Positions 17,953 to 32,227 of a DNA stretch of 33,624 bases are shown in pieces; the stretch's first letter is position 1; each line of letters begins with the position of its first letter. The notes below the pieces were generated by a model. The model was not told the DNA's origin, did no database searches, and worked only from the letters and a program-made list of their open reading frames with translations. The position numbers and the translations under genes were made by a program. Origin of the DNA: an uncultured Rubrobacteraceae bacterium. GTDB lineage: Bacteria; Actinomycetota; Rubrobacteria; Rubrobacterales; Rubrobacteraceae. The stretch is from NCBI GenBank assembly GCA_902805975.1, contig CADCUT010000120.1:1-33624 (forward strand), in the 5' to 3' direction.

Positions 17953-18027
17953 CTGAGGGGTTCTCCGCGAACTTCGCCCTGGTAGCGTCTCCCGACCTTC
18001 GGCCTGAGGGAGTTCTCAGGAGTTCGG
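17953..18027 (+). repeat. Intergenic GAACTTC repeat, copy 1 (one and a half cores)
   Basis: A partial core (GGTTCTCCGCGAACTTCG) is followed by a second, fuller one (CCGACCTTCGGCC, GAGGGAG, TTCTCAGGAGTTCGG). The head is absent. It lies in the promoter region of the 18064 gene. Confidence 0.6.
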
Positions 18028-18050
18028 TATCGCGTCCGGGGCACCGATAG

Positions 18051-18056
18051 TACACT
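18051..18056 (+). promoter_or_regulatory. TACACT box 7 nt before the start of 18064
   Basis: TACACT is a good -10 element and is separated from the ATG by only 7 nt, with no ribosome site, implying a leaderless mRNA. No clear -35 is seen. Confidence 0.4.
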
Positions 18057-18063
18057 TGGTAGC

Positions 18064-18510
18064 ATGAGCGCGCCGACCAACGAGACGCCCCGGTCCTTGA
18101 TGAGGTTGGTAGACCGGATCGGCACCAGCCCTGACCCGGGACTCTCTGACGGCCGGCACTGGCGCTCGATCTTCTTCGGTGCGGTGATATTCGCCCTGAA
18201 CGCCTTGCCGGATCCCGGGTGGGTCTCCTCCCCCGCCGACCAGTACTCGCGGCTGCTGTGGCTCTGCCTGGGGCCGACGTTGGTCTCGCAGGGTGCGTCG
18301 GGCCTGCTGATGAGGCGGGGCAAGGAGACGCTCTCGCTGTGGTTCTCGGTCCTCCAGGCCCTGCTTACTGTTCCGATGGTCGCCTTCGGGTTCCTTCTGC
18401 TCTACGAGTGGGTGGGGCTCCCGTGGGCGGTCGGTGTGGTGGTCGCGGCCTGCGCGATCTTCTACGTGGTGCGTTCGGGGCAATCACGCCGATACGACGA
18501 GGGAGCGTGA
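18064..18510 (+). CDS. Small integral membrane protein, hypothetical
   Basis: A 148-residue membrane protein of no family I recognise. After a polar N-terminus of about 35 residues come hydrophobic segments FFGAVIFALNALP, LLWLCLGPTLVSQGASGLLM, LWFSVLQALLTVPMVAFGFLLLYEW and LPWAVGVVVAACAIFYVV, i.e. four probable helices. Its stop overlaps the GTG of the following membrane gene (GTGA), so the two are an operon. The pair could form a complex. No regulator or enzyme neighbour gives a clue. Confidence 0.75.
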   Translation: MSAPTNETPRSLMRLVDRIGTSPDPGLSDGRHWRSIFFGAVIFALNALPDPGWVSSPADQYSRLLWLCLGPTLVSQGASGLLMRRGKETLSLWFSVLQALLTVPMVAFGFLLLYEWVGLPWAVGVVVAACAIFYVVRSGQSRRYDEGA

Positions 18511-18989
18511 GCACGGCACCCATAGGACAGCCAAGGAGAGCCCGGCTGCTGCTGAGGCGGATCGTCGGCCGCCCGTCCGAGAAGCCCCCCGGCAGGGTGT
18601 CCTCGGCGATCTTCCTCCTGGTCTTCGCGGTCGGTCTCTTACTCGCCGCTCTCGCTTGGCGGGGAGGCCCCTCGCTCTTGGACCTCTCCATCGCCTGCGT
18701 CATGCTGGGCAGCTTGCTGTTCGGGCCTGCGAACGCCGCCGCTCACTACCGCTGGTGGGGGGAGCTTACGGGGGATCTGGTGCGTCTGGGGGGGATGGTT
18801 TTGTTCCTCGTCGGCCTGGGCCTGCTTATAGCGGAGATGGCGCTGACGGGGAGTTGGGGGTGGGTATGGTGGTCGGCGTTCGTCCTGGCGCTGTGCGTCG
18901 TTGTCGCCGTGGCCGGGCACTACTACGGACCGCAAGACGAAGCCCACCCCGAGGACGGCCCCCCGGAGGGGCGCAACCCGAGCACCTGA
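18507..18989 (+). CDS. Small integral membrane protein, hypothetical, second of pair
   Basis: From GTG 18507, 160 residues. A basic N-terminus (RRARLLLRRIVGR) precedes helices SSAIFLLVFAVGLLLAALAW, LLDLSIACVMLGSLLFGPA, LVRLGGMVLFLVGLGLLIAEMAL and WVWWSAFVLALCVVVAVAGHYYG; the tail is acidic and Pro-rich. GGGAG overlaps the upstream stop. It is translationally coupled to the 18064 gene. Function unknown. Confidence 0.72.
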   Translation: MSTAPIGQPRRARLLLRRIVGRPSEKPPGRVSSAIFLLVFAVGLLLAALAWRGGPSLLDLSIACVMLGSLLFGPANAAAHYRWWGELTGDLVRLGGMVLFLVGLGLLIAEMALTGSWGWVWWSAFVLALCVVVAVAGHYYGPQDEAHPEDGPPEGRNPST

Positions 18990-19000
18990 GCTATGTACCG

Positions 19001-19056
19001 AACCTCTAGAAGGGCCGTTCTGCGAACTTCTCCTTGACGGCGTTCTAGAAAGGTCG
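19001..19056 (+). repeat. Intergenic GAACTTC repeat, copy 2
   Basis: Head reduced to CCTCTAGAAGGG; arms CTGCGAACTTC and GTTCTAGAAAGGTCG. The central part differs from other copies (TCCTTGACGG). Lies between two plus-strand genes. Confidence 0.6.
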
Positions 19057-19118
19057 TCTGGAGGGATAAAGTGTCGGATAGGATGTAAGTCGCTGGGCCG
19101 GAAAGGAGGGGAGCGGCG

Positions 19119-19379
19119 GTGGACCTGCTAAACGCGATCCTTCCCTACGCCATGGCAGGCGCCTTGTTGTTCTGGCTCATCGCGGAGGACCGGGAGAGGA
19201 GCTCGCGCTCGCGGGTTCTGAGCCTCGTTTCCGACGTGATCCTCGCCCTGCTCTTCGCCGGAGAGGATCGAGACTACCATTGGTGGATCTCAGGCTCCTT
19301 TTTGATCGGGCTTGCCGCCCTGGGGATCGCCTTGGGGATCGCCTTGCTCGGGCTGCTCATCCCCGGCCCACCGCCCTAG
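19119..19379 (+). CDS. Small two-helix membrane protein, hypothetical
   Basis: An 86-residue protein from GTG 19119, with GGAGGGGAGCGG just before it. Hydrophobic segments are LLNAILPYAMAGALLFWLIA near the N-terminus and SGSFLIGLAALGIALGIALLGLLI at the C-terminus; between them is a charged loop (EDRERSSRSR). The second segment has a short repeated LGIALGIALLG pattern. No family recognised. Confidence 0.65.
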   Translation: MDLLNAILPYAMAGALLFWLIAEDRERSSRSRVLSLVSDVILALLFAGEDRDYHWWISGSFLIGLAALGIALGIALLGLLIPGPPP

Positions 19380-19414
19380 TTCATGCCTCGCCGCTTCGGT
19401 CCCTCCTCCTATCC

Positions 19415-19458
19415 TTATTCACCGGAGTGCGTGGAAGGATGGTTCCCGGAAGTTCGCC
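19415..19458 (+). repeat. Intergenic GAACTTC repeat, copy 3
   Basis: Intact head CACCGGAGTGCGTGGAAGG followed directly by a tail arm TTCCCGGAAGTTCG; the central part is deleted. Between the convergent 19119 and 19499 genes. Confidence 0.65.
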
Positions 19459-19498
19459 CCGACTGTTGCGAGGTGCCCGGGTGGAGGCACGGCGGGTT

Positions 19499-20143
19499 TC
19501 AGTTCGCCGGATGCCGGGCCATCCCGAGGATGTGCGGCATCGGGGAGAGCGGCACGGGGCTGAAGGCGAACCGCTCGCAGCGCTCGATCACGAACCCCGC
19601 CCGCCCGATCGCGGCGCCCGTGTCGCGGTCAGGGTGGCAGCCGCCGAGCATCCGCGGCCAGAAGGTCGCGTCCGCCAGGCGCTGCAACCGCGCGCAGGAC
19701 GCATTTCGCGCGACCACGTGCTCGTAGAAGCGCAGCTCGCCCCCGGGCTTGATCACCCGGAAGAGCTCCGCCAGCGCCCGCCCCTGGTCGGGGACCGTGC
19801 ACAGCACCAGCGCGGCCACGCCGGCATCGAACGATCCGTCCTCCCCTGGTAACTCCTCGGCTACGCCGTCTAGAACGGTGATCGGGACCGGCGCCGAGCT
19901 CGCGGCCCGCTCGGCCTGTCGGCGGAGGCGCCCCTCGGGCTCGATGGCCGCGACGCGCTCGACAGACGCCGGGTAGTAGGGGAAGTTCGTCCCGTGGCCC
20001 GCGCCAACTTCGATCACGCGGCCCCCGAGGCCGTGCAGGAGCCTACGGCGGTGTTCGTCCGCGCCGCGGCTCACGGACGCGGGTGCGATGACCCGCTCCC
20101 ACAGGCGGGCGAAGAGGGGGTGGTGCACCTGCTGATCGGCCAT
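19499..20143 (-). CDS. Class I SAM-dependent methyltransferase
   Basis: A 214-residue methyltransferase of the UbiE/Coq5-like Rossmann type. Motif I is VIEVGAGHGTNFPYY, followed by AAIEPEGRLRRQAE (acidic SAM-ribose residue), FDAGVAALVLCTV (motif IV) and VIKPGGELRFYEHV (motif VI). The ATG at 20143 follows GGAGGGAAGG. The substrate could be a lipid, quinone or small molecule. It lies downstream of a second, unrelated methyltransferase on the same strand. Confidence 0.9.
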   Translation of the reverse strand: MADQQVHHPLFARLWERVIAPASVSRGADEHRRRLLHGLGGRVIEVGAGHGTNFPYYPASVERVAAIEPEGRLRRQAERAASSAPVPITVLDGVAEELPGEDGSFDAGVAALVLCTVPDQGRALAELFRVIKPGGELRFYEHVVARNASCARLQRLADATFWPRMLGGCHPDRDTGAAIGRAGFVIERCERFAFSPVPLSPMPHILGMARHPAN

Positions 20144-20328
20144 CGGATCCTTCCCTCCTAACGCTTCTTTCAGCCAACATGATGACACCGGGCCGCGCAC
20201 AGCGCACGCGTCGAGAGCCTCTCCACCGAGGCGTGTGGAAGACCTGGGTCAAGACAGCGCCCTACCCGCACATAAGAACCGCGTGATACCCACCGGAGGG
20301 TATTACGCCCCCTGCAAGCTGGCCCCAT

Positions 20329-20377
20329 CGTACCGGAGCTCTGCGAACTTCGGGCTGAGGGGGTTCTAAGAAGTCGA
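20329..20377 (+). repeat. Intergenic GAACTTC repeat, copy 4
   Basis: A trimmed head ACCGGAG, then arms CTGCGAACTTCGGGC and GGGTTCTAAGAAGTCG around CTGAGG. Between two minus-strand methyltransferase genes, just past the stop of the frameshifted one. Confidence 0.65.
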
Positions 20378-20405
20378 CCGCCGGGGAGACCCGTGCCCCG
20401 GCCTC

Positions 20406-21219
20406 CTACGTCTTGCGGGCCCGAAGCGAGTACATGAGCGGGAGCCTGGGACTCCCCTCGGGGGGGGCGGTAGGTGCGAGGCGCGGACTCTTCCAGGAAC
20501 GGCCACCGCGGGAACGTGGTGTGGTCGTGCTCGCGCAAGAGCTCGATGCTCAGGCCCGCGGAGGCCGCCGCGCTCACCACCTCGCCCAGGGGGTGCCTCC
20601 ACTCGTAGGTTACGTTGTTCTCCGTCTCGGCCTCGGGGTCGGCGTAGGTGCCGGGCTCGTCCCAGACATCGGGCTCCGCTGAGTGGAAGTAGTCGCGCTC
20701 CACTGTCAGCCCCTCGTCCCCGAACACCTCCGTGAGGGGGTGGAACTCTGCCACGTAGAGGAACCCGCCGGGGCGCAGCAGCGAGGCGACCACCCCGGCC
20801 CACCCGCCCATGTCCGGCAGCCAGTTCAGGGCGCCCCGGCCGGTGTAGACGACGTCGAAGGTTCGTCCGCCCAGGGCCTCGGCGGCCTGGTAAACGTCGG
20901 ATTGCACGAACGCGGCCTCGATCCCCATCCCCGCGGCGAGCCTCTCGGCCGCCTCGACGGCCGGGGCGGAGAAGTCAAGGCCCGTGACGCGGGCGCCGCG
21001 ACGGGCCCAGCTCAAGGTGTCCATCCCGAAGTGGCACTGGAGGTGCAGGAGGTCCTTGCCCGCAACGTCGCCGACCTCGGACACTTCGAAGGGCAGCAGG
21101 CGCTCTCCACCGGCCTTGAAGGAGGCGACGTCGTAGAATCCCCCGGAGGTGTGGATCGGCACGCGCTCGTCCCAGCTTGCCCTGTTCGCCTCGCGCCACT
21201 CTTCCTGCCACTCGCTCAT
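20406..21219 (-). pseudogene. SAM-dependent methyltransferase, frameshifted in a C8 run
   Basis: An otherwise complete class I methyltransferase of about 270 residues. It begins EWREANRASWDERVPIH, and motif I is LLHLQCHFGMDTLSWARRGA with the binding acid in GLDFSAP. After FLEESAPRTYRPP the reading frame should continue EGSPRLPLMYSLRARKT and stop at 20406-20408. Instead a run of eight C (minus strand; G at 20460-20467) holds one base more than needed, and the unshifted frame runs on through unrelated sequence to about 20170. A homopolymer sequencing error or a slippage event both fit. The ATG at 21219 follows GGGAGG. Confidence 0.85.
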
Positions 21220-21380
21220 CGTTCGCCTCCCGTCTGTTGCAGGCTCTTCATCGGTAGGGGTTCGACCGGTCCGCTGTGTCGACGCCCAATACGAGCGGGC
21301 GGGAGTATATTTTGCCATACGACACGCGGCAGCTTCCGAGGATGCTCGGCCGGACAGCCTCGTCCCCTCCGCCCCTGCTC

Positions 21381-21442
21381 ACCCAACCTCGTAGAAGGCT
21401 CATTCTGCGAACTTCGGGCGTAGAGGGTTCCGCGAAGTTCCG
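21381..21442 (+). repeat. Intergenic GAACTTC repeat, copy 5
   Basis: Head CCCAACCTCGTAGAAGGC, arms TTCTGCGAACTTCGGGC and GGGTTCCGCGAAGTTCCG. The paired CGAACTTC and GAAGTTC can form a hairpin. Between the cupin gene and the methyltransferase, both on the minus strand. Confidence 0.7.
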
Positions 21443-21534
21443 TGGGCGTCCAAAAAGGAGGGTTGAAGTCGCTCTTCAAAGCGGGGCTTTGTTCCCGAAG
21501 GTCGCCGCGACACAAAGCCCCGAGTCTGCCCGCG

Positions 21535-22044
21535 CTAGGGAAGAGTCGACACCATCTCTACGCCATACATCGCCCCCACGGCGGCTAGCCTCCGGATGTC
21601 GTCCCCCATCGGCTCTCCCGTCTGCGCGGGTATCCCCTCGGTGGTCGCCGGAGGCCCTACCTCTTCGATGAAGCGCTCGTACGCCCCGCCCGGCGTCTGG
21701 CTCACCAGCATCCTGCCGGTCGTCTCGCCCGCGTTCTCGAAAGCGTGCAGGACGCCCTTGGGCACGTAGACCAGCGAGCCCGGGCCTGCCTCGATCCGCT
21801 CGCCTTCCACGACGAACCCGAAGCGGCCCTCCAGCACGTAGAAGCACTCGTCCTCGCGGTGCTGGACGTGGGGCCCCTCGCCACCCCCGGAGCCTACGGT
21901 GACCTCGAAGAGCGAGTAGGCCCCGCCGGTCTGTTCGCTGCCCACCTTGCGAGTAACGAGCTGTGCCCTCGGCATCCGTGTGGTCTGACCCTCCCCTGGC
22001 CCGACGTGCGCGGGGCCGCTGATGCTCGGGTTCCTCGGTTTCAT
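21535..22044 (-). CDS. Cupin-domain protein
   Basis: A 169-residue single-domain cupin. The core reads GEGPHVQHREDECFYVLEGRFGFVVEGER then GPGSLVYVPKGVLHAFEN, giving cupin motif 1 (HxH(x)4E, metal ligands) and motif 2 (with the C-terminal His). The N-terminal part is polar; the tail is helical (RFIEEVG). Such proteins are metal-dependent dioxygenases, isomerases or binding proteins; the substrate cannot be told. ATG 22044 follows GGAAGGA. Confidence 0.88.
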   Translation of the reverse strand: MKPRNPSISGPAHVGPGEGQTTRMPRAQLVTRKVGSEQTGGAYSLFEVTVGSGGGEGPHVQHREDECFYVLEGRFGFVVEGERIEAGPGSLVYVPKGVLHAFENAGETTGRMLVSQTPGGAYERFIEEVGPPATTEGIPAQTGEPMGDDIRRLAAVGAMYGVEMVSTLP

Positions 22045-22071
22045 CCGTCGTATCCTTCCCTGGTGCTTCGC

Positions 22072-22100
22072 GGAGGGCCGGGTCGTGCGCCCGGCCCTCC
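22072..22100 (+). terminator. Strong GC hairpin between the DUF11 and cupin genes
   Basis: GGAGGGCCGGG and CCCGGCCCTCC form a perfect 11-bp stem around a 7-nt loop, followed by TTT on the plus strand. On the minus strand, where both flanking genes are read, no T-tract follows, so it may attenuate read-through from the DUF11 gene or protect the cupin mRNA. Confidence 0.5.
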
Positions 22101-22196
22101 TTTGGGTGGTGTCGTCGGCTTTCCTTGCGGCGGTGGGCTCCCAGTATCGCTGAGAGCCTCCTCGCCACTTCCAGGAAGCCGGCCGCCGTGAGGATG

Positions 22197-22727
22197 CTAC
22201 CGACGCTGCGCCTCTACCAACGCCCTGGCCGCGTCGGAGTTGTCGGAGGTGTCCGATTCGAGCGCGCGGGCGCTCGGGCTGGTGTAGCTGGCGTAGGCCC
22301 TGTTGGTGTAGGAACCTGCCACCACCGGCTTGACGTGGATCTTTGCCGTAACCGTCTTGTCCACGCCCAGGGTGCCCAGGCGGCAGGTCACCACCCGGTC
22401 CTCTATGCCGCAGCTGCCCGGCACTTCCCTGCTCGTGGTGGCCCGAATGAACCTGACCTTGGAGGGCAGCGGGTCGGTCATCCTCACACCCTCGGCGCGA
22501 CTCGTGCCTTCGTTGGTGATCCTGATGGTGAAGGCCTGCCGTTCGCCCACCTCGACAGCCCTGGGGTAGACCGTCTTTTTGAGGACGAGGTCCGGCCCTG
22601 CTTGCGCCGTCTGCGCCCCGGCCGTGCCTCCCAGGGCCATCAGCAGTGCGGCCGTCGCCGCGAACGCCCCCGCGAGCAGCGCCGCCACCCAAAGCCGTCC
22701 CGTCCCTGCCGTTGTCGTGTTCGTCAT
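22197..22727 (-). CDS. Secreted DUF11-domain protein
   Basis: A 176-residue secreted protein. Residues 1-40 form a signal peptide (RLWVAALLAGAFAATAALLMALGGTAGAQ). The mature part is one DUF11 repeat: AGPDLVLKKTVYPRAVEVGE, ITNEGTSRAEGVRMTDPLP, and a beta-sandwich ending NRAYASYTS, as in many cell-surface proteins. There is no sorting motif, so it is probably released. Its neighbour 22800-23291 is also secreted. TGxAA-like cleavage near GTAGAQ. Confidence 0.88.
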   Translation of the reverse strand: MTNTTTAGTGRLWVAALLAGAFAATAALLMALGGTAGAQTAQAGPDLVLKKTVYPRAVEVGERQAFTIRITNEGTSRAEGVRMTDPLPSKVRFIRATTSREVPGSCGIEDRVVTCRLGTLGVDKTVTAKIHVKPVVAGSYTNRAYASYTSPSARALESDTSDNSDAARALVEAQRR

Positions 22728-22799
22728 GAAGTGCTCCCTTCTCTCTTTTGGGAGCTGGCCCGGTGAGCCGGCCAGCTCCCAACTATCCGTCTGGCCGTC

Positions 22800-23291: not shown

Positions 23292-23447
23292 TTGCTTGTT
23301 TCTCCTTTTTCGGTCCTGCGGTATTTGTGTGCTTCCCTTGGGGTTTTCGCTGTGGCGTCCTTGTGTCATCCTTGTTCTCCTCCGCTTCCGGTTGCTCGAC
23401 TGACCGGAGTCTGCCGCGCCGGCGGGCGGTGGACCACGCACAGCACA

Positions 23448-23489
23448 CACACGACGCCCACACAAGGGCTGCCGTGTGGGCGTCGTGTG
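23448..23489. promoter_or_regulatory. 16-bp perfect inverted repeat between divergent genes
   Basis: CACACGACGCCCACAC (23448-23463) and GTGTGGGCGTCGTGTG (23474-23489) are exact complements around a 10-nt spacer. It lies about 155 bp from the RTX start and 80 bp from the regulator start. Neither side has a T-tract, so it reads as a two-fold operator or cruciform rather than an intrinsic terminator. The remaining DNA of 23292-23571 holds no gene. Confidence 0.6.
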
Positions 23490-23571: not shown

Positions 23572-26013
23572 ATGGGAGAACGCGACACCAAAGGCGAAGT
23601 CCCCGAAGGGGTAGCGGCCTTGCCGTTCGGCGCCCGCCTGCGAAGCATGCGGCGGGCCGCGGGGCTCACGCAGGAGGAGCTGGCCTCGCGGGCGGGCCTG
23701 AGCCCCAACGCCGTCGGCACCCTGGAGCGCGGTGCCAGGAGGCGGCCGCAGCCGCACACCGTCAGGGCTCTCTCCGACGCCCTGAACCTGCCGGAAGGCG
23801 AACGGGCGGCCCTCCTCGCATCGGTGCCCGAGCGGGGCGGGCCCACCCCGCCCGCGGAGAGACATCGCTCGGCGTCCCCCGTGGTGCCCGCTTTGCCCCG
23901 GCCCCCCACTCCGCTGGTGGGCCGCGAGCGCGAGATAGCCGAGGTGCGAGGCCTGCTCACTCAGCGGAACGCGCGGCTGCTGACGCTTACCGGCATAGGG
24001 GGCGTGGGCAAGACTCGTCTGGCCGCAGAGGTCGCACGAGAGGCCGGGGGAAACTTCCCTGACGGGACGGCTTTCGTCGGGTTGGCCTCGCTCTCCGACG
24101 CCGCCCTCCTGGTTCCGACGGTCTTGCGCTCGTTAGGCGCGCCCGAGGCGCAGGGTAGGACCCCGCTCGAGTCCTTGGTCGACCACCTGAGAAGCGAGCA
24201 TTTTCTGCTTGTACTCGACAACCTCGAGCACCTGCTCGAAGCGGCGACGGAGGTGGCGGTCCTGATCGAGGGCTGCCCGAAACTCGTCGTGCTAGCCACA
24301 AGCCGCGCGCCCTTGCGCGTAAAGGGCGAGCAGGAGTATCCCATTCCTCCCCTCGCGCTGCCCGCCTCCACGCGTGCGCCGTCCGAAGAAGGGGTACTCG
24401 CCTCGGCGTCGGGGATGCTCTTCGCCGAGCGTGCCCGGGCGGCTTCCCCCGGATTCAAGCTCACCCCTGAGAACGCCGCCTCGGTGGCGGCGATCTGCTG
24501 GCGGCTGGCGGGGCTGCCGCTGGCGCTGGAGCTTGCGGCGGCCAAGGCCAGGTTCCTGGACCCCGCGACGTTGCTCTCGCGGCTGGACCAGGCGCTGTCG
24601 ACGGCCTGGGCCCGCGACTTGCCCGAGAGGCAGCGCACGATGCGGGCGACGCTGGACTGGAGCTTCGGGCTGCTCGGCGAACCGGAGCGTAGCCTGCTCG
24701 GACGCCTCTCCGTGTTCGTCGGCGGCTTCTCGCTTCCGGCGGCCGAGGCCGTGGGGGCGGGGCCCGACGCGGTGGGAAACGCCGGGGGGGAGGACGTGAT
24801 CGACCACCTCGGTACCCTGGTGGAACAGTCGCTGGTGACGGTTGACCCGGATGCGGGCGGCGAGGCCCGCTACGGGATGCTAGAGCCGGTAAGGCAGTAC
24901 GCCAGGGAGAAGCTCGAACAAAGCGGGGAGGCGCAAGGCGTCCTGCGCGAGCACGCCGCGTTCTTCCTGGCTCTCTCCCGGCGTGCGGGTTCCGGGATGT
25001 GGGGCCCACGGCAGGGTGAGTGGCTGGAGAGGCTCGACCGAGAGAACGGCAACCTGCAGGCGGCCATAGGCTGGGCGCTTGGGGCGGGGGAGGCGGCGAC
25101 CGCCGCGCGGTTTGGCTGGATGTTGAACTCGTTCTGGTTCTTGCGCGGGTACCACCGGGAGGGACGCCGCTGGGCGGAGGCGACGCTCGAAGGCCCGCTT
25201 CCGCCCAAGCTGCGGGCCAGAGCCCACCACGCCGCCGCGGCTATGGCCTTCGCGCAAGGGGACTACCCTGCCGCCGAGGGGGGCTGGCAAGAAACCCTGC
25301 GCCTCTCCCAGAGCGAGGGAGACATCCTGGCGGAGGCCTACGCGTGGGGCGGGCTGGGGATCATCGTAATGGTCCGCTCGGACTTCGAGTTGGCGGCCTC
25401 CCGCATGGAGAAGGCCCTCTCGCTCTTGGAGCGCTACGACGAGGATCCGCCCCCGGAGGGGCAGGACTACGAAGACCCTACAAGCGTGGTTTCCGTGACG
25501 CGCGTGTTCCTCGGGACGACGATGCTCGCGCGCGGCGACCTCGGCGGGGCGCAGCGGATGTTCGAGGAGGGGCTGGAGGTCGCCCGTCGTACGGACAACC
25601 CTATGGCCACCTACGTGGGACTGTACAACCTGGCCCAGCTGGCGCTGACCCGGGATGATCTCGAGCTCGCGTCCCGCACGCTGGAGGAAGGGATAGATCT
25701 CTCCGGGCGAACGAAGGACCGGGCCAACCTGGCGCACTTCCTGGACGCACTCGCGGCGGTGGCCGCCTTTCGGGACGAGGCTAAGCGCTCCGCAACCCTG
25801 CTGGGGGCGGCCGAAGCTTTGCTGGAGGAGGTCGGGGCGCGGGTCCACAACTACTACGCCCCGGATCCCTCACTGCGGGAACGCGCCATCGCCGAGGCGC
25901 GCGCCGGTCTAGGCGCGACGGCCTTCGAGGAGGCGTGGGAGTGGGGACGAGGGATGAGTTTTGACCGGGCGGTCGAGTACGCACTCGGGGTCGATACCGA
26001 GCGTCCCATCTGA
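23572..26013 (+). CDS. XRE-type STAND ATPase regulator with TPR tail
   Basis: An 813-residue signal-transduction ATPase. Residues about 19-75 are an XRE helix-turn-helix (FGARLRSMRRAAGLTQEELA, SRAGLSPNAVGTLERG). LVGREREIAEVRGLL opens the NB-ARC/NACHT-like module, with the P-loop GIGGVGKT at 141-148 and Walker B FLLVLDNLEHLL near 211-222; the downstream CWRLAGLPLALELAA segment is the GxP motif. About 470-800 are helical repeats like TPRs (HHAAAAMAFAQGDYPAAEGGWQETL, LFNLAQLAL-like units). Such proteins detect a ligand through the repeats and then bind DNA. It is divergent from the RTX gene, its likely target. The substrate or signal is unknown. Confidence 0.9.
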   Translation: MGERDTKGEVPEGVAALPFGARLRSMRRAAGLTQEELASRAGLSPNAVGTLERGARRRPQPHTVRALSDALNLPEGERAALLASVPERGGPTPPAERHRSASPVVPALPRPPTPLVGREREIAEVRGLLTQRNARLLTLTGIGGVGKTRLAAEVAREAGGNFPDGTAFVGLASLSDAALLVPTVLRSLGAPEAQGRTPLESLVDHLRSEHFLLVLDNLEHLLEAATEVAVLIEGCPKLVVLATSRAPLRVKGEQEYPIPPLALPASTRAPSEEGVLASASGMLFAERARAASPGFKLTPENAASVAAICWRLAGLPLALELAAAKARFLDPATLLSRLDQALSTAWARDLPERQRTMRATLDWSFGLLGEPERSLLGRLSVFVGGFSLPAAEAVGAGPDAVGNAGGEDVIDHLGTLVEQSLVTVDPDAGGEARYGMLEPVRQYAREKLEQSGEAQGVLREHAAFFLALSRRAGSGMWGPRQGEWLERLDRENGNLQAAIGWALGAGEAATAARFGWMLNSFWFLRGYHREGRRWAEATLEGPLPPKLRARAHHAAAAMAFAQGDYPAAEGGWQETLRLSQSEGDILAEAYAWGGLGIIVMVRSDFELAASRMEKALSLLERYDEDPPPEGQDYEDPTSVVSVTRVFLGTTMLARGDLGGAQRMFEEGLEVARRTDNPMATYVGLYNLAQLALTRDDLELASRTLEEGIDLSGRTKDRANLAHFLDALAAVAAFRDEAKRSATLLGAAEALLEEVGARVHNYYAPDPSLRERAIAEARAGLGATAFEEAWEWGRGMSFDRAVEYALGVDTERPI

Positions 26014-26050: not shown

Positions 26051-26116
26051 TTATGCACCCGAGTGCGCGGAAGGTTTATTCCCCCGAACTTCGGGCCAAG
26101 AGGTTCTGAGAAGTCC
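26051..26116 (+). repeat. Intergenic GAACTTC repeat, copy 6
   Basis: Near-complete: head CACCCGAGTGCGCGGAAGG, arms CCCCGAACTTCGGGC and AGGTTCTGAGAAGTCC. Between the regulator (plus) and RidA (minus), convergent. Confidence 0.75.
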
Positions 26117-26137
26117 TTCACAAGAAGCCATGGTCCG

Positions 26138-26533
26138 CTACACCACGGCCGTGGCTTCTATCTCCACCAACATCTCCGGCAAGGCCAGCCGCGTCACGCC
26201 CACCAGCGTGCTGGCCGGTCGGCAACCGGCTTCTGCCAAGCGGCTGGCCAGGGCGCCGTAAGCTTCAAGGAAGCGGTCAACGTCGGTGGTGTAGATGTGC
26301 AAGCGCATCACGTCCGAGAGGCTGGCGCCCGCCTCCCTTAGGACGGCCTCCAGGTTGTCGAGGGTCTGGCCGATCTGGGCCCCCATGTCTTCGGGCTGCA
26401 CCGGCGAGCCCTCGCCATCGACCGACCCCTGCCCCGCGCAGTAGATGGTGCGCCCGGCGCCCGCCACCTCGTTGGCCTGTACGTAGCCCATCTGGTCCTG
26501 CCAGGTCCACGGGTTGATGATCCTTCGCTCCAC
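26138..26533 (-). CDS. RidA-family (YjgF/YER057c/UK114) deaminase
   Basis: A 131-residue RidA-family protein; typical members hydrolyse reactive enamine/imine intermediates from PLP enzymes. It has PWTWQDQMGYVQANEV near the N-terminus, YCAGQGSVDGEG, QTLDNLEAVLREAGASLSDV and CRPASTLVGVTRLALPEMLVEIEA, the last carrying the conserved Arg region and the Glu. GTG 26533 has GGAGGAGAGCG before it. A longer frame exists upstream but is not RidA-like. The aminotransferase at 2807 is far away, so no local coupling. Confidence 0.9.
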   Translation of the reverse strand: MERRIINPWTWQDQMGYVQANEVAGAGRTIYCAGQGSVDGEGSPVQPEDMGAQIGQTLDNLEAVLREAGASLSDVMRLHIYTTDVDRFLEAYGALASRLAEAGCRPASTLVGVTRLALPEMLVEIEATAVV

Positions 26534-26634
26534 CGCTCTCCTCCTTACCGGGTGCCTTACGTCGCCAACAGCCGGGGCATCATAGCTGCACCGCGAGCTG
26601 CAAAGGATCACGCCAGCGGCGTATTCTCGGCCCC

Positions 26635-26699
26635 TATTCACCCGAGTGCGTGGAAGGAAGGTCCCGCGACTTCGGCTTGAGGGGGTTCTCCGAAGTCGG
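26635..26699 (+). repeat. Intergenic GAACTTC repeat, copy 7
   Basis: Near-complete: ATTCACCCGAGTGCGTGGAAGG as head (CACCCGAGTGCGTGGAAGG), arms CCCGCGACTTCGGC and GGGGTTCTCCGAAGTCGG. Lies in the leader of the 26774 gene. Confidence 0.75.
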
Positions 26700-26773
26700 A
26701 AGTCGGGCCCCACCGCCCTAGGCGTTGTAGGATGGGCAACGAACTCCCTGTACCTATACACCCGAGGCGGTGG

Positions 26774-27196: not shown

Positions 27197-27210
27197 GCCG
27201 CCACCCGCGC

Positions 27211-27276
27211 TGTCCACCGGAGTGCGTGGAAGGCTTCTTCTCGGAACTTCTGGAGTAAAAGGTTCTCGGAAGTTCG
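27211..27276 (+). repeat. Intergenic GAACTTC repeat, copy 8
   Basis: Near-complete: head CACCGGAGTGCGTGGAAGG, arms TTCTCGGAACTTC and GGTTCTCGGAAGTTCG with TGGAGTAAAA between. The clearest copy; placed just after the lipoprotein stop. Confidence 0.8.
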
Positions 27277-27364
27277 CGCCGAGCCGGGGTCGGCCGGAGC
27301 GCATGGGGAACGCGGTCCGCGGGTAACATGGCCCAGGCCGGTCAATCGAAGAAGGGAGCGAACC

Positions 27365-27916: not shown

Positions 27917-27940
27917 CCGGATGCTCCGCACCCGGTCTTT

Positions 27941-27963
27941 TGGGAGTTCTGGGGAAGTCCGCG
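27941..27963 (+). repeat. Degenerate GAACTTC repeat, copy 9
   Basis: Only the tail arm is recognisable: GGGAGTTCTGGGGAAGTCCG. Between the convergent SRPBCC gene and the 27970 gene. Confidence 0.4.
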
Positions 27964-27969
27964 AGGGTG

Positions 27970-28374
27970 TTACGCTCCCTTGAGGGCCCGCAACGCCGGA
28001 CCGAGACGGGGCAGTCCCAGCAGGCGCGCCAGGAACCGCTCCCGGCCCAACCCCACCAGGGGGCCCGTCCCGTCCTCGAGCATCCCAGGCAGCGGGTCGA
28101 GGGCCACACCCCTTATGCCCCTGGACCCGCAGAGGATCGAGGCAAGCTCCCCACACCGCGTCTCCCCCACCCGCCACCCGTTCGCGGCTTCGCCGGGCCC
28201 CAAAGACCAGAGGAAGAACCTGGCTTCCTCCTCGTGGCCGAAGACCGCCAGTAGCTTGCCCCCGCCGCCCCGGGGGATGCTCATAGCCTCGACGCGCCCT
28301 GTCTGGATCCGCGAGATGATCCACCACGCCGTCTTCTGCGCCGGCCCCGCCTTCGCCCTGTTCGCCTCTATCAC
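27970..28374 (-). CDS. Hypothetical protein
   Basis: About 134 residues from GTG 28374. The N-terminus is basic and reads IEANRAKAGPAQKTAWWIISR; the centre holds LLAVFGHEEEARFFLWSLG, then GWRVGETRCGELASILCGS, GVALDPLPGM and GLGRERFLARLLGLPRLG. No signal peptide. It resembles a small conserved family I associate with Rubrobacter, but no function is known. Frame open further upstream is not protein-like, so the GTG is preferred. It is preceded by the 16-bp tandem repeat at 28405-28440. Confidence 0.65.
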   Translation of the reverse strand: MIEANRAKAGPAQKTAWWIISRIQTGRVEAMSIPRGGGGKLLAVFGHEEEARFFLWSLGPGEAANGWRVGETRCGELASILCGSRGIRGVALDPLPGMLEDGTGPLVGLGRERFLARLLGLPRLGPALRALKGA

Positions 28375-28404
28375 TAAGCCCCGTCCTCTCCCTAGCGTGC
28401 GCGG

Positions 28405-28440
28405 GCCCAAGCTAGCCCCGGCCCAAGCTAGCCCCGGCCC
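28405..28440. repeat. 16-bp tandem duplication
   Basis: GCCCAAGCTAGCCCCG occurs twice exactly head to tail (28405-28420 and 28421-28436), followed by GCCC. It lies in the promoter region of the minus-strand gene at 27970. Confidence 0.7.
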
Positions 28441-28480
28441 GATGCCGCGACGGTGATGGGGCGCACAGATGGGGCTTGCC

Positions 28481-28692
28481 CGGTCGAAAAATGGCCCCAA
28501 AGGTGCACCGAGAGAAACGAGAAGGAACCGCGCCGATGGTGGAAGGCGCGGGCCCAGCGATGTGTTGGGCGGAGGCCGCGGGCGCAGGAGCCCGGTTGGG
28601 TGATAGCGGCCTCCCGCTGTGGTGCATTCGTACCCGCTCGCGCCGCCCCTGCACCCTTCCCCGTTGCGCCCTTCGGGCCATTTTTCGGACCG
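28481..28692. mobile_element. MITE-like 212-bp element with terminal inverted repeats
   Basis: CGGTCGAAAAATGGCCC at the left end (28481-28497) and GGGCCATTTTTCGGACCG at the right (28675-28692) are inverted copies; extended, about 26-27 bp match at 23 of 27 positions. The interior forms hairpins: GGAGGCCGC with GCGGCCTCC, and GCCCA with TGGGC. No gene fits it. The AAAAATGG core is unusually AT-rich for this DNA. It could be a small non-autonomous transposon or a structured RNA; no target-site duplication is certain. Confidence 0.5.
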
Positions 28693-28804
28693 TAGCCTCC
28701 GGGCGGTCCTCGACCTGCGATGATGGCCCCACACACCAACGTCCCGTGGACGATCTTCGTGGCCTTCCTGCGCGCGGACCTTGTTCTCGCAGGGAGGAAC
28801 CAAG

Positions 28805-29191
28805 ATGACCGCACCGCGCGTGCTCGTAGCCATAGGTCCCAGGTTGTACGCGGAGGGGCTCGCCTCCTCACTGGGCACGCACCGTCCCCGCGCCGAGGTG
28901 ACGATCCTGGGCCCCTCGGAAGACGTCGAGCACGGGGCCCTTCGGGTGCGCCCGCACCTCATCGTCGCCCACCGGGTGCCGCCCGAGGCGAGGGTCGGGG
29001 CCTTCTGGATAGAGATCGCGGAGCTCGCCGGTGGCGAGGGGGACAAGCCCGTCGGCGCGGAGATAAGCGCGAACGGGTACTCAAGAAGCGTGGCCGACGT
29101 CCGCACCGAGCACGTGCTGGCGGCGCTCGACCGGGCCGAAGATGAGTTCCTCCTCGGCCGGGGCCACGCCCAGGGCGAGGGCAGGCCGTGA
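28805..29191 (+). CDS. Degenerate receiver-like protein partner
   Basis: A 128-residue protein from ATG 28805, after an AGGGAGGAACC ribosome site. Its first half looks like the start of a response-regulator receiver, with RVLVAIGPRLYAEGLASSLG and VTILGPSEDVEHGAL, then RPHLIVAHRV where the phospho-acceptor strand would be; no acidic pocket or acceptor Asp is visible. It ends in a helix (EHVLAALDRAEDEFLL). It overlaps the following response regulator (GTGA). It may be a partner or decoy for it. Function unknown. Confidence 0.7.
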   Translation: MTAPRVLVAIGPRLYAEGLASSLGTHRPRAEVTILGPSEDVEHGALRVRPHLIVAHRVPPEARVGAFWIEIAELAGGEGDKPVGAEISANGYSRSVADVRTEHVLAALDRAEDEFLLGRGHAQGEGRP

Positions 29192-29889
29192 GCGTCATGC
29201 GGGTGCACCTGGCAGACGACCACACCATGTTCAGGGAAGGATTGGAGTCCATCCTCTCCTCCCGCGAAGGGGTGGAGGTGGTCGGCACGTCGTCCACCGG
29301 GGAGGAGGCCGCCGAGCTGGTCCGCCAGGCCAGGCCGGACGTGATCATCACCCAGCTGGAGATGCAGCCCAAGACGGCCCGGGAGATCATCGAAGGGCTG
29401 CGGGAGGCCTCGCCGGACTCGAGGATCATCGTTCTCACCCTGTGGGACAACCTGCGCTACGTGCAAGCGATATCGAAGATGGGCATAGACGCCTACCTGC
29501 ACAAGTCTTCATCGACGGAGGAGCTCGTCGCCACTTTGGGCGCCATTACCCGCGAACCGGGCGGGGGGAACGCGGTGATCTCCATGCCCCGCGCCCTGCT
29601 GGAGCGCCTCGGCGACGATCCCGCCGGCGGCCTCTCAGAGAGGGAGACCGAGGTGGTGGTGCTCGCCGCCCGCGGGCTCTCCAACCGTCAGATAGGCCAG
29701 GAGCTGTTCATCTCAGAGGGCACCGTCAAGCGCCACCTGGCCAACGTCTACCAGAGGATAGGGGTCCGCTCCAGGAACGAGGCGGTGAGGAAGGCGCTCA
29801 TGGAGCAGTGGATCGGCATCTACGAGATAACCGACGCCGAATTTGCCCCCGGGGACGGCACCCCAAGCCCCGACGGCTCGCACGGGTAG
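29188..29889 (+). CDS. LuxR-type response regulator lacking the phospho-acceptor Asp
   Basis: A 233-residue NarL/LuxR response regulator. The receiver starts VHLADDHTMFREGLE with the acidic pair Asp10-Asp11, and has Thr84 (VLTLWD) and Lys106 (LHKSSS). At the acceptor position the normal Asp is Gln56 (IITQLEMQ), so phosphorylation in the usual way is not expected. The C-terminal HTH (149-196, LSERETEVVVLAARGLSNRQIG, SEGTVKRHLANVYQRIG) is intact. GTG 29188 overlaps the previous gene by four bases. The protein may be controlled by its partner or by ligand. No histidine kinase is adjacent. Confidence 0.88.
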   Translation: MSVMRVHLADDHTMFREGLESILSSREGVEVVGTSSTGEEAAELVRQARPDVIITQLEMQPKTAREIIEGLREASPDSRIIVLTLWDNLRYVQAISKMGIDAYLHKSSSTEELVATLGAITREPGGGNAVISMPRALLERLGDDPAGGLSERETEVVVLAARGLSNRQIGQELFISEGTVKRHLANVYQRIGVRSRNEAVRKALMEQWIGIYEITDAEFAPGDGTPSPDGSHG

Positions 29890-30041
29890 CGACCACCCGG
29901 GGGCCGGTCCGCGGGCCTAGCGGGCCGGGAACCCCCGGCGCAGCTCTTCGCGCGCCTCCCGCACTACAGGATCGTCGCCCCCACGGCGCCTGAGCCAATG
30001 GGGGCCAGACCAGGACATAATCCCCGTTACACCGTGTGCCG

Positions 30042-30060
30042 CGGGGCTGGCAAGGCCCCG
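30042..30060. other. Short hairpin in the 29890-30137 region
   Basis: CGGGGC and GCCCCG enclose a 7-nt loop. It follows a CATAAT copy at 30016-30021. No gene is seen in this stretch; it may be a terminator for the regulator. Confidence 0.35.
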
Positions 30061-30067
30061 GAGTTGC

Positions 30068-30108
30068 GGGCCACCGGGTTCCACGGTCGTCCGTGGTGGC
30101 CCTTTACC
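30068..30108 (+). promoter_or_regulatory. Nested inverted repeat abutting the -35 of the exporter gene
   Basis: GGGCCAC (30068-30074) with GTGGCCC (30096-30102), and within them CCACGG-TCGT-CCGTGG, give a nested inverted repeat that ends exactly where the -35 TTTACC (30103-30108) begins. An operator is a good guess. Confidence 0.5.
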
Positions 30109-30131
30109 GCGGCACCCTCCCGGGGCATAAT
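30103..30131 (+). promoter_or_regulatory. Promoter of the LysE-family gene
   Basis: TTTACC (30103-30108), 17 bp, CATAAT (30126-30131), then 6 nt to the ATG. Spacing is ideal and there is no ribosome site, so the mRNA is probably leaderless. Confidence 0.65.
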
Positions 30132-30137
30132 CCCCCT

Positions 30138-30782
30138 ATGGAAAACCTGCTTGCGACCGTCGCGGCCTTCTCCGTTGTGGCACTCCTGGCCGCCATGGTG
30201 CCGGGGGTGGACACGGCCCTCGTGACCAAGAACGCCCTCGGCAGGGGTGCGGCATCGGCGTTGCTCACCGCCGCCGGGTGCTCCACCGGCCAGCTCTTCT
30301 GGGGCGTGGCCTCCGCGTTCGGGGTGGCCGCGGTCTTGGCGGCCTCAGCCACCGCCTACTCGTTCGTGAAGCTGGCCGGGGCCTGCTACCTCGTCTACCT
30401 CGGCGTGCGCTCGCTGCTCGCCGCCCTATACCGGGAACGCCCGGCGGACGGCCCGGACGGCGGTGACGGGATCGCGGGCGAAGTCCCGCTGCGAGCCTCC
30501 TATGCAGAGGGGCTCGTGACCAACCTGCTCAACCCCAAGACGGCGCTGTTCTTCTCCTCCCTCGTCCCGCAATTCGTCTCGCCCGGGGACCCGAACTGGC
30601 TGTTCGCCGTCCTGACGGCGCTGACGGCGACGACCTCGTTGCTGTGGCTGTGCGTCCTCACGGTACTCCTGCGCTCCGCCGGGGCGTTCCTGAGCCGGTC
30701 CGGGCCCCGCCGCGTGCTCGACGGTGTCATGGGCACGGTGCTCGTCGCCCTGGGCGTCCGCGTGGCGCTCTCTCGCGGCTAA
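30138..30782 (+). CDS. LysE/RhtB-family amino-acid or metabolite exporter
   Basis: A 214-residue inner-membrane exporter of the LysE superfamily. VVALLAAMVPGVDTALVTKNALGRG is the signature N-terminal PGP-like motif (here PGVDT) after the first helix; SFVKLAGACYLVYLGVRSL is helix 3, and GLVTNLLNPKTALFFSSLVPQF is the conserved NPK block. Six helices fit the length. A short charged loop with PADGPDGGDG lies between. It exports amino acids or related metabolites, possibly as detoxification. A leaderless promoter lies immediately upstream. Confidence 0.9.
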   Translation: MENLLATVAAFSVVALLAAMVPGVDTALVTKNALGRGAASALLTAAGCSTGQLFWGVASAFGVAAVLAASATAYSFVKLAGACYLVYLGVRSLLAALYRERPADGPDGGDGIAGEVPLRASYAEGLVTNLLNPKTALFFSSLVPQFVSPGDPNWLFAVLTALTATTSLLWLCVLTVLLRSAGAFLSRSGPRRVLDGVMGTVLVALGVRVALSRG

Positions 30783-30909
30783 CGGAGGCGCTGGAGGGTT
30801 TCCAGGTGGGGAACAACGCCTCCTCCGCGCAAGCCCACCAAGGCTCGGACATTTCCTCCCCCACGACCCGGATAATGCGCCCGGCCGGCCCCGCTGCACC
30901 TGCTTCGAC

Positions 30910-30950
30910 CCTTATGCCCCGGGGTGCGTGCAAGGGGCGTTCTAGAAAGT
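30910..30950 (+). repeat. Truncated GAACTTC repeat, copy 10
   Basis: Head CCCGGGGTGCGTGCAAGG is kept, followed by TTCTAGAAAGT; the arms are missing. Between two convergent genes. Confidence 0.5.
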
Positions 30951-30988
30951 AGGTACGGCCCTCGCTCGGCAGCCGTGGGCGATGGAGG

Positions 30989-31189
30989 CTAGGACCTCCG
31001 GAAGGGCCACGTGGTCGGGTTGATGCCGTAGGCCAGGACGCACGCCAGCAGCCAGATGGCCGCCAAGCAAAACCATAGCCGGTAGACCCCGCGACCTTCC
31101 GTGAAGTACGCGGCCGGTACCACGAGCACCGCCACGATCGTCAAGACGAGCGCCACGGCCATCCCCGACAATTGACCATTATCTACCAT
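30989..31189 (-). CDS. Small two-helix membrane protein, hypothetical
   Basis: A 66-residue protein from ATG 31189, read on the minus strand. Hydrophobic segments are MAVALVLTIVAVLVVPAAYF and LWFCLAAIWLLACVLAYGI, joined by TEGRGVYR; the end NPTTWPFRRS is basic. A TATACT box lies about 15 nt upstream. A longer frame upstream gives charged residues unlike a membrane start. No family recognised. Confidence 0.55.
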   Translation of the reverse strand: MVDNGQLSGMAVALVLTIVAVLVVPAAYFTEGRGVYRLWFCLAAIWLLACVLAYGINPTTWPFRRS

Positions 31190-31253
31190 CGCTACCCGGC
31201 CCCAGTATACCCCGTCCGTTCCGGGGTCGTTCTCGGAACCTCGCCCGAAACCC

Positions 31254-31320
31254 ATCCAACCGGGTGCGGTAAAGACCCTTTCTGCGAACTTCGGCTGTAG
31301 GGAGTCCTCCGAAGTTTGCG
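31254..31320 (+). repeat. Intergenic GAACTTC repeat, copy 11
   Basis: Head CCAACCGGGTGCGGTAAAG, arms TTCTGCGAACTTCGGC and GAGTCCTCCGAAGTTTGCG. The paired CGAACTTC / GAAGTTTG can fold. In the divergent space before the RTX gene. Confidence 0.7.
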
Positions 31321-31466
31321 ACCCTTAAGGTCTAGGCCTCGGCCCGGAAGATGGGACCCTGGTACCACGGCCCGCGCGTATCCCGCTGCTAGAATCCGGC
31401 TGATCCCCTTCCGGTAGATCGGTTTGCCGGGCCGCGGGCTGTGGAGGGCTAACGAGGAGGGTATGC

Positions 31467-32066
31467 GTGGCGAAGAGGATGATGCTGGTGCTCTCGATAG
31501 GGACCCTGCTCGTGGTACTGGCGGGCGGGGTCGCGCTGGCGAAGACGTTCACCGGCACCGGCGGCAACGACAACATCGAGGGAACCCGCAACGCCGACGA
31601 GATCTCCGCTCGCGCTGGCAACGACACGGTCGATGGCAACAACGGCGGCGACACGATCAACGGCGGCGCGGGAAAGGACGATATCCACGGCGGCCCCGGT
31701 AACGACACCACCTACGGTCTCGCCGGCGTAGACAGGCTATCCGACAGCGAGGGCGACGACCGCGTCTTCGGCTTCGGTGGATCCGACGAGATCATCACCT
31801 CGCATCCCGGCGACGACCAGTTTCACGGCGGCGAGGGCGGCGACTACTTTGGTGGCCCCCCCTGCTGCAGCTACGGCTCCATAGGCACCGACCTGTTCGA
31901 CGGCGGGGACGGCGACGACACCATCGAAGCAACCGATCAGATGGGCCTCTCGCCCAACCAGCCGGACGTCGTCGAGTGCGGCCCTGGCACGGACAAGGTC
32001 AGAGCTGACCCCGACGACGATGTGGCCGCCGACTGCGAAGACGTGAGGCTCGTCCGGAACGAGTAA
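31467..32066 (+). CDS. Small secreted RTX-like calcium-binding protein, second
   Basis: A 199-residue exported protein, signal peptide MAKRMMLVLSIGTLLVVLAGGVALA. The mature protein contains GGxGxD-type repeats (GTGGNDNIEGTRNADEI, ARAGNDTVDGNNGGDTIN, GGPGNDTTYGLAG, GSDEIITSHPGDDQFHGGEGGD) forming a calcium-bound beta-roll, then GGPPCCSYGSIGTDLFDGG. The C-terminus DVVECGPGTDKVRADPDDDVAADCEDV parallels the end of the 22800 protein. GAGGAGGG precedes GTG 31467; TAGAAT at 31390-31395 is a possible -10. Function unknown, probably extracellular matrix or binding. Confidence 0.87.
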   Translation: MAKRMMLVLSIGTLLVVLAGGVALAKTFTGTGGNDNIEGTRNADEISARAGNDTVDGNNGGDTINGGAGKDDIHGGPGNDTTYGLAGVDRLSDSEGDDRVFGFGGSDEIITSHPGDDQFHGGEGGDYFGGPPCCSYGSIGTDLFDGGDGDDTIEATDQMGLSPNQPDVVECGPGTDKVRADPDDDVAADCEDVRLVRNE

Positions 32067-32158
32067 CGCACCCGCAGGGTGGGCGCGTCGGCCAGAATAT
32101 CTGTCGCTACGCGACTTTCTAACATGGGCGCCACCGCCTGCGCGGCGCTCCTTGCCTC

Positions 32159-32227
32159 CATGCACCGGGGTGCCTAGAAGGGTAGTTCTCCGAATTTCGG
32201 GCCGAGGTGGTTCTCGGAAGTCCTCCG
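32159..32227 (+). repeat. Intergenic GAACTTC repeat, copy 12
   Basis: Head CACCGGGGTGCCTAGAAGGG, arms TTCTCCGAATTTCGGGCC and GGTTCTCGGAAGTCCTCCG. Between the RTX and P-domain-like genes. Confidence 0.75.

What the first reader, a model, noticed from the sequence alone, without database searches (positions are those of the whole stretch)
17953..32227. Family of intergenic repeats with a conserved head and pairing arms
Twelve copies were found by eye. The fullest ones (26051, 26635, 27211, 31254, 32159) share a head close to CACCGGAGTGCGTGGAAGG, then TTCTCCGAACTTCGG, a GA-rich middle, then GGTTCTCGGAAGTTCG. CGAACTTC and GAAGTTCG can form a hairpin; the two arms are also near-direct repeats. Every copy is in the same orientation whatever the direction of neighbouring genes. 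This is unlike a random gene leader and looks like a REP/MITE-type or RNA element I cannot match to a named family.
Basis: seen in the sequence. Interest (0 to 1): 0.85.

Follow-up and report, generated by a model that had tools for sequence, protein, structure and literature searches.

The report
Gene-cassette arrays without integron parts
The repeats look like one-way joints between exchangeable gene cassettes, strung in arrays as in an integron, in uncultured soil bacteria where neither the integron enzyme nor folded integron sites were found.

Summary
The repeat is real and, in the window, always on the + strand. It is neither a REP/MITE nor a demonstrable RNA: the hairpin shows no covariation (85.5% of cells paired; 85.1% shuffled). 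The own genome has at least 137 matches; 24 of 39 Rubrobacteraceae genomes have one. Copies form same-strand arrays (271 neighbour pairs same, 22 opposite). Each copy is a joint between gene cassettes: the conserved 23-nt head ends the upstream cassette; after a variable 3-nt linker the TTCTCCGAACTTCG arm begins the next. Homology between loci stops there: alignments continue through 8 of 374 element encounters, 33 of 160 element-free intergenic encounters and 264 of 401 gene-interior encounters in the same arrays. Five window cassettes recur beside other neighbours. It works like an integron cassette array, but no element-rich genome reached the integron-integrase cut-off, the sites show no unusual fold and cargo genes point either way (176 with, 157 against). 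The recombinase was not found. My reading: an integron-like cassette system with sequence-defined sites, so far seen only in uncultured Rubrobacteraceae and unclassified actinobacterial bins.

The parts
17959..18029 (+). first element of the window's array: tandem arms (left ends), no recognisable head
   Evidence: nhmmer model positions 31-68 at 17989, extra arm at 17963
18992..19056 (+). element (diverged head, arm 1, arm 2)
   Evidence: DNA from 18990 on is 94% identical to G020 contig C247 (L092) and differs upstream
19415..19462 (+). element: head CACCGGAGTGCGTGGAAGG plus one arm
20338..20376 (+). element: arms, head absent or diverged
21375..21440 (+). element with variant head CACCCAACCTCGTAGAAGG and both arms
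26051..26117 (+). full element
26633..26699 (+). full element
27210..27277 (+). full element
30911..30946 (+). element: head (right end of the upstream cassette), weak arm
31252..31319 (+). full element with diverged head
32158..32226 (+). full element, last one found in the window
27211..27233 (+). example of the right end (RE) of a cassette: TGTCCACCGGAGTGCGTGGAAGG
   Evidence: information profile of 280 headed copies; right change points of the two most identical pairs end here
27234..27236 (+). example of the variable 3-nt linker (CTT)
   Evidence: linker is 3 nt in 230 of 317 heads, 46 different triplets
27237..27252 (+). example of the left end (LE) of the next cassette: CTTCTCGGAACTTCTG
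18030..18991 (+). cassette with two small genes without Pfam match; 18508-18974 is 66% identical to L198 343-812, which lies between two elements
19057..19414 (+). cassette with one small ORF; 18990-19287 is 94% identical to L092, beside other neighbours
26118..26632 (+). cassette carrying a RidA/L-PSP-family gene on the opposite strand; 26137-26549 is 77% identical to L074 3449-3860 (G022), which also lies between two elements
   Evidence: Pfam
28800..29838 (+). cassette cargo without Pfam match, 75-85% identical (whole or in part) to cargo near elements in L038, L046 and L056 (same genome) and 82% to L121 (G020)
30947..31251 (+). short cassette; with its right-hand element 82% identical to L036 903-1250
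17741..17786 (-). 3' half of a tRNA-Ala(TGC), 91% over 46 nt, 173 bp before the first element
   Evidence: ARAGORN finds no complete tRNA in the window

Best explanation
The repeats are the recombination joints of gene-cassette arrays. A cassette is: left end (LE: 3-4 variable nt, then TTCTCCGAACTTCG, often with a second arm 25 nt further on), one or a few genes in either direction, and right end (RE: TATTCACCSGAGTGCGTGGAAGG). Cassettes stand head to tail, so a joint reads RE, linker, LE in one direction. Shown: the joint, its fixed spacing and orientation, the stop of homology at the joint, and reuse of single cassettes at other places and in other genomes. Inferred: a site-specific recombinase cuts at or next to the end of the RE and moves cassettes one at a time, probably as circles, as an integron does. 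Which enzyme does it was not found. A tyrosine recombinase is only my best guess: the site has the look of two short half-sites around a variable middle, and of the three recombinase classes searched it is the only one with a match in every element-bearing genome.
For: Homology stops at joints: blocks continue through 8 of 374 element encounters, 33 of 160 element-free intergenic encounters and 264 of 401 gene-interior encounters; 2 of 455 blocks contain a copy, against 29.2 (sd 3.9) for random intergenic places. Block ends near copies: 538 of 1726, shifted copies 277 (sd 25, 20 repeats). Example: a 3.1-kb stretch, 99.3% identical between G021 (L081) and G020 (L110), with unrelated DNA on both sides; identity ends on the right directly after the head. 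Change points: 30 of 32 left ends at or after model position 26; 20 of 34 right ends at or before 27. Head, then exactly 3 nt, then arm: 230 of 317 heads. The linker varies with the arm's first base (z 7.0-9.4) more than with any head position (highest z 4.8), so it goes mainly with the downstream cassette. Same orientation 271 to 22. One called gene in 177 of 271 cassettes. Tyrosine recombinases match in 39 of 39 genomes; serine recombinases and IS110 have no match in G019, which has 15 elements.
Against: No recombinase was tied to the arrays: none of the element-rich genomes has a TIGR02249 match over cut-off, and the integrase gene that abuts one array (L109) has orthologues with no significant element match in the 8 other loci held, which reach 0.3-1.5 kb downstream of the gene. 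Change points scatter: 14 of 34 right ones lie beyond position 40, and 10 of 32 left ones fall at 42-48, between the two arms, so one fixed cut does not explain all pairs unless arm 1 is a separate unit. 45 of 317 heads have no arm within 130 nt and 105 of 313 arm clusters have no head within 7 mismatches. The midpoints of 43 of 447 elements fall inside a called gene. Neighbouring linkers are slightly more alike than random (mean distance 1.85 against 2.04, sd 0.07). The element-rich genomes are metagenome bins, so mis-binning could mimic some between-genome cases.
Confidence: 0.75

Rival explanations
1. Dispersed intergenic repeats whose only role is to be short stretches of similarity; ordinary homologous recombination between them shuffles the genes, with no dedicated enzyme.
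For: 32 copies share a mean column identity of 74% over about 70 nt. No recombinase was found. Change points scatter over the element.
Against: Left and right change points would follow one distribution; instead 30 of 32 left ones lie at or after 26 and 20 of 34 right ones at or before 27. The exact 3-nt spacing of a variable linker and the 271 to 22 orientation bias are not expected.
Confidence: 0.15
2. A true but divergent integron: arrays of attC-like sites made by an IntI encoded elsewhere (a CALIN).
For: Tandem one-way cassettes, mostly one gene, cassette reuse. G030 of the same family has a TIGR02249 match over cut-off.
Against: TIGR02249 over cut-off in 1 of 39 genomes, and that genome (G030) has 1 element match. 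Sites are conserved in sequence with no supported fold, the reverse of attC as described in PMC9024848. Gene orientation 176 to 157.
Confidence: 0.07
3. REP/MITE-type mobile repeat that inserted beside genes.
For: Mostly intergenic, about 70 nt, many copies.
Against: No empty site: 2 of 455 blocks run through a copy and in both the partners carry equal numbers of copies. No identical short flank duplication (linkers equal in 9 of 138 neighbouring pairs, 7.3 expected).
Confidence: 0.02
4. Structured RNA or terminator-type regulatory element.
For: Arms can pair in single copies.
Against: No covariation beyond shuffling, no unusual stability in 8 window copies folded, no Rfam match in the window, no fixed direction relative to genes.
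Confidence: 0.01

Closest known systems
Integron cassette array / CALIN
   Same: Tandem small gene cassettes, one joint per cassette, joints in one direction, single cassettes reused at different places.
   Different: No integron-integrase match over cut-off in the element-rich genomes; joints conserved in sequence with no supported fold; cargo genes in both directions; several separate arrays per genome, some beside tRNA genes or tRNA halves. [quoted passage not shown]
pdif (Xer) modules of Acinetobacter
   Same: Gene modules bounded by short recombination sites.
   Different: Only the opening of the abstract of PMC12907356 was seen, in a search listing; that pdif sites are about 28-bp dif copies, often in alternating orientation, is recalled. 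Here most joints of an array point one way; likeness to dif was not tested.
IS1111/IS110 elements that insert into attC (recalled; PMC11187229 seen as a search listing only)
   Same: Here too insertion sequences sit inside the joint: a MITE of about 141 bp at one fixed point of the RE, and one IS110-type gene between the halves of an arm.
   Different: They look like parasites of the joint, not the cassette system itself.

Membership tests
Integron | IntI integrase (TIGR02249 over cut-off) in the genome | tested here: not met
   1 of 39 family genomes over cut-off, G030, with 1 element match; none of the element-rich ones. These are bins of 75-100% completeness, so absence in one is not proof.
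Integron | attC sites variable in sequence, conserved in folded structure | tested here: not met
   Sequence conserved; no covariation beyond shuffling; z -0.04 to -1.25 for the 8 of 11 window sites folded, bottom strand. The attC covariance models themselves were not available.
Integron | attI platform beside the integrase | tested here: inconclusive
   A 38-nt sequence before the first arm is identical in L109 and L082, but it follows the ends of two different genes that look shortened (by eye); 8 loci with orthologues of the L109 integrase show no significant element match in the stretch held.
Integron | tandem one-way cassettes, mostly one gene each | tested here: met
   271 to 22 orientation; 177 of 271 cassettes with one called gene.
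Integron | cassette genes mostly in one direction relative to the site (recalled) | tested here: not met
   176 same, 157 opposite (simple gene caller).
Integron | cassettes excised as circles and recombined in vivo | not testable with these tools
   Only sequence comparison was possible.
MITE/REP | insertion into otherwise colinear DNA (empty sites) | tested here: not met
   0 of 455 blocks show one partner with and one without a copy inside.
MITE/REP | short target duplication at both sides | tested here: not met
   9 of 138 neighbouring linkers identical, 7.3 expected; mean distance slightly below random.
Rfam RNA family | match at gathering score | tested here: not met
   0 matches in the window.
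pdif/Xer modules | site is a copy of the chromosomal dif | not tested
   The dif site of these genomes was not located.

The most novel reading that the evidence does not exclude
An independently evolved gene-cassette capture system, an integron analogue that recognises a double-stranded sequence joint instead of folded attC hairpins, has built arrays with about a hundred or more joints per genome in several uncultured Rubrobacteraceae, members of a phylum in which one survey of complete RefSeq genomes (PMC9024848) found no complete integron.
Probability: 0.55. Interest if true: 0.9.

Novelty: new variant of a known kind. Interest (0 to 1): 0.8.

Why it matters
Integrons are, to my knowledge, the main known device that stores, shuffles and captures single genes in long arrays. 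A second, unrelated way of doing so would show that the strategy evolved more than once, would add a pool of exchangeable genes in soil bacteria, and may yield a recombinase that joins DNA at a short sequence with a freely variable 3-nt middle. The joints are easy to find by sequence, so the idea can be tested at once in long-read genomes.

Tried and rejected
Hairpin/RNA: covariation, folding and Rfam gave no support. A wider pair scan of 282 copies gave single pairs up to z 6.8 and a best 4-pair helix sum of 10.4, mostly at positions 38-67, in the arms where an ungapped alignment slips; I do not read this as structure, but it is not excluded.

Replication polarity: base skew of contigs did not, by eye, sort with orientation, and strands switch inside contigs such as L060.

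Integron: integron integrase searched in 39 genomes.

Other recombinases: Phage_integrase in 4 genomes gave mostly diverged integrases plus two orthologous groups present in all four (one labelled Xer-like by me). By my count, 4 of 41 integrase hits in G000, G021 and G022 lie within 2.5 kb of an element. Serine recombinases and IS110 have no match in G019, which has 15 elements. The integrase of L109 looked like an IntI with an attI; its orthologues are 56-84% identical, but the 8 other loci held show no significant element match in the 0.3-1.5 kb downstream, and in L109 its last residues differ from theirs, as if the array had cut into it. Rejected as the cassette enzyme for lack of evidence.

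Target duplication: equal linkers on both sides of a cassette were looked for and not found above expectation.

Outside the family the full model was not run; only the exact 23-nt head was searched, in genome contigs (88 stretches) and viral contigs (0). Anti-phage defence models matched few cassette proteins (6 families, at most 2 of 127 members).

Literature: six searches listed no paper that by title or abstract describes this system; the library lacks most subscription papers. PMC9024848 and PMC8618304 were read as passages; all other papers only as search listings.
Full report
Observation. Reference-free repeat finding groups them, an nhmmer model places 11 copies in the window, all on the + strand, and the head pattern gives 66 hits in the 3.53-Mb assembly against 2 for the reversed pattern. 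A sequence-only model built from 32 copies finds at least 137 matches in the own genome (only 150 of 1447 first-look candidates were scored, so this is a lower bound), 119 and 97 in G021 and G022, at least 150 in G020, and matches in 24 of 39 genomes of the family, the own one included. Two single-contig members of the family (G014, G015) have none, and the two-contig G024 of the same genus has 4. The named records with the exact head (88 stretches) are labelled Rubrobacteraceae, Rubrobacter or unclassified actinobacterial bins (records near the window may be left out there). By contig number and length G020, G021 and G022 appear to be the bins AVDCRST_MAG01, MAG02 and MAG58 (inference).

Anatomy. 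In 280 headed copies the information profile shows a 23-nt block TATTCACCSGAGTGCGTGGAAGG, three to four variable positions, then TTCTCCGAACTTCG, and a weaker second arm; beyond about 70 nt nothing is conserved except a mild pyrimidine bias upstream. Of 317 heads, 230 are followed by an arm after exactly 3 nt, with 46 different triplets; 45 have no arm within 130 nt; a second arm follows at 25 nt in 104 of the 141 copies with two or more arms; 105 of 313 arm clusters have no head.

Hairpin not supported. Eight arm pairs over 32 copies: 85.5% of cells paired, 85.1% after shuffling, covariation score reached by 133 of 500 shuffles. Eight of the 11 window copies, folded as single-stranded DNA on the bottom strand, give z between -0.04 and -1.25.

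Arrays and cassettes. In 117 sequences (1.23 Mb) from G000, G020, G021 and G022, 447 elements were found; neighbours closer than 2.5 kb are on the same strand 271 times and opposite 22 times, with a median same-strand gap of 756 bp. With a simple gene caller, 177 of 271 cassettes hold one gene, 34 none, and genes point with the elements 176 times and against them 157 times; 43 of 447 element midpoints fall inside a called gene, which may be wrong calls or real overlaps. In the window the array region carries two methyltransferases, a cupin, a DUF11 protein, two RTX-repeat proteins, a RidA protein, a polyketide-cyclase-type protein, a LysE transporter, a large HTH/NB-ARC/TPR regulator and genes without Pfam match. 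Cargo is varied: 127 cassette proteins, chosen as one per blastp cluster, match 97 Pfam families, none in more than 4 members; some cargo is repeated, the largest cluster holding 50 of 1299 called genes.

Homology stops at the elements. Of 455 homologous blocks of at least 250 bp between loci, 2 contain an element, against 114 (sd 12.5) for shifted elements and 29.2 (sd 3.9) for random intergenic positions. Within the same arrays, blocks that reach an element continue through it in 8 of 374 cases, through element-free intergenic gaps in 33 of 160, and through gene interiors in 264 of 401. Clear cases: L036 1242-2258 (own genome), lying between two elements, matches L067 912-1878 (G022), where the right-hand element is also present, at 76%; L081 and L110, 3.1 kb at 99.3% with unrelated DNA on both sides. 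In the window, the segments at 18030-18991, 19057-19414, 26118-26632, 28800-29838 and 30947-31251 have counterparts elsewhere (66-94% identical over the parts listed).

Where the exchange point lies. In the two most identical usable pairs the right end of the shared block is the last base of the head (L081/L110, L076/L105), and in three pairs the left end starts at the linker (positions 26-27). Over all pairs with at least 78% identity, 20 of 34 right change points are at or before 27 and 14 beyond 40; of 32 left ones 2 lie before 26, 3 at 26-27, 10 at 42-48, 15 at 54-73 and 2 later. The group at 42-48 would mean that arm 2 travels with the downstream cassette while arm 1 is exchanged by itself, as if arm 1 were a cassette without cargo; this is inference. 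The linker depends on the arm's first base (z 7.0-9.4), less on the head (highest z 4.8), and is not duplicated on both sides of a cassette (9 of 138 pairs equal, 7.3 expected; mean distance slightly below random, 1.85 against 2.04, sd 0.07). So the cut most likely falls at or next to the end of the head.

Mechanism and enzyme. The pattern is that of site-specific recombination acting on single cassettes. I could not name the enzyme. No integron integrase over cut-off in the element-rich genomes; no serine recombinase or IS110 transposase common to all element-bearing genomes (G019 has 15 elements and neither); no array-linked integrase family shared among the genomes examined. A tyrosine recombinase, perhaps a host Xer protein, remains possible; the head end and the arm form imperfect inverted half-sites (about 6 of 9 positions by eye, not tested) around the variable middle, which is weak evidence.

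Context. The window's array starts 173 bp from the 3' half of a tRNA-Ala. In the 117 sequences I count 13 partial tRNA matches covering the 3' half (one, in L053, is cut by a contig end), 6 of them within 500 bp of an element, and 8 complete tRNAs, 4 of them within 500 bp. No null was computed; it suggests that some arrays ride on islands inserted at tRNA genes. Insertion sequences seem to use the joint as a target: 27 heads (28 rows, one place held twice) are split at the same point by the end GAGACTGTCTGG or a variant; where the far end was found (9 places) the insert is 140-142 bp, with GGA on both sides in 6 of the 9.

Comparison. [quoted passage not shown] PMC8618304 (passages) describes cassettes as generally an ORF plus attC, moved by IntI, and lists Actinobacteriota among phyla with integrons. 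The present arrays behave like integron cassettes but fail the defining tests on IntI and on site structure that I could run. Six literature searches listed no description of it.

Limits. The element-rich genomes are metagenome bins of 75-100% completeness; several counts are lower bounds because searches score at most 128-150 candidates; gene calls are simple; the full model was not run outside the family; some between-genome cases could be mis-binning, but within-genome cases (L048/L054, window/L036, L038/L046/L056) show the same behaviour.

Noticed in passing
L031 5531, L038 4898, L099 2871, L109 9090 and others (28 rows, 27 places): An insert with the end GAGACTGTCTGG (or a variant) sits at one fixed point inside the head; in the 9 places where the far end was found it is 140-142 bp, with GGA on both sides in 6 (a MITE). 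An IS4/5-type transposase gene (L031 1421-2293) lies beside a head split by the same kind of end.
   Followed up: partly
L109 about 4475-5715: An IS110-type transposase gene lies between the two halves of an arm (GGGGGTTCTCGG ... GGAAGTTCGC), as if inserted into the recombination joint; one case seen.
   Followed up: partly
window 17741-17786; L066 13523-13568; L134 3857-3901; L061 14616-14668: 3' halves of tRNA genes within 18-173 bp of an element, possibly old attachment sites of islands.
   Followed up: partly
L109 4412-4449 and L082 2721-2758: An identical 38-nt sequence stands directly before the first arm of two arrays in two genomes, each time after the end of a recombinase or transposase gene that looks shortened.
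   Followed up: partly
L109 3313-4398; orthologues in L278-L284: A tyrosine recombinase group (56-84% identical to the L109 protein) found in 8 Rubrobacteraceae genomes, with fragments in G023 and G032; the G021 copy has three internal stops.
   Followed up: partly
window 23572-26013: A large HTH / NB-ARC / TPR regulator with DNA relatives (66-73%) in the same genome (L040, L059, L138, L140) and in G020 (L109).
   Followed up: no
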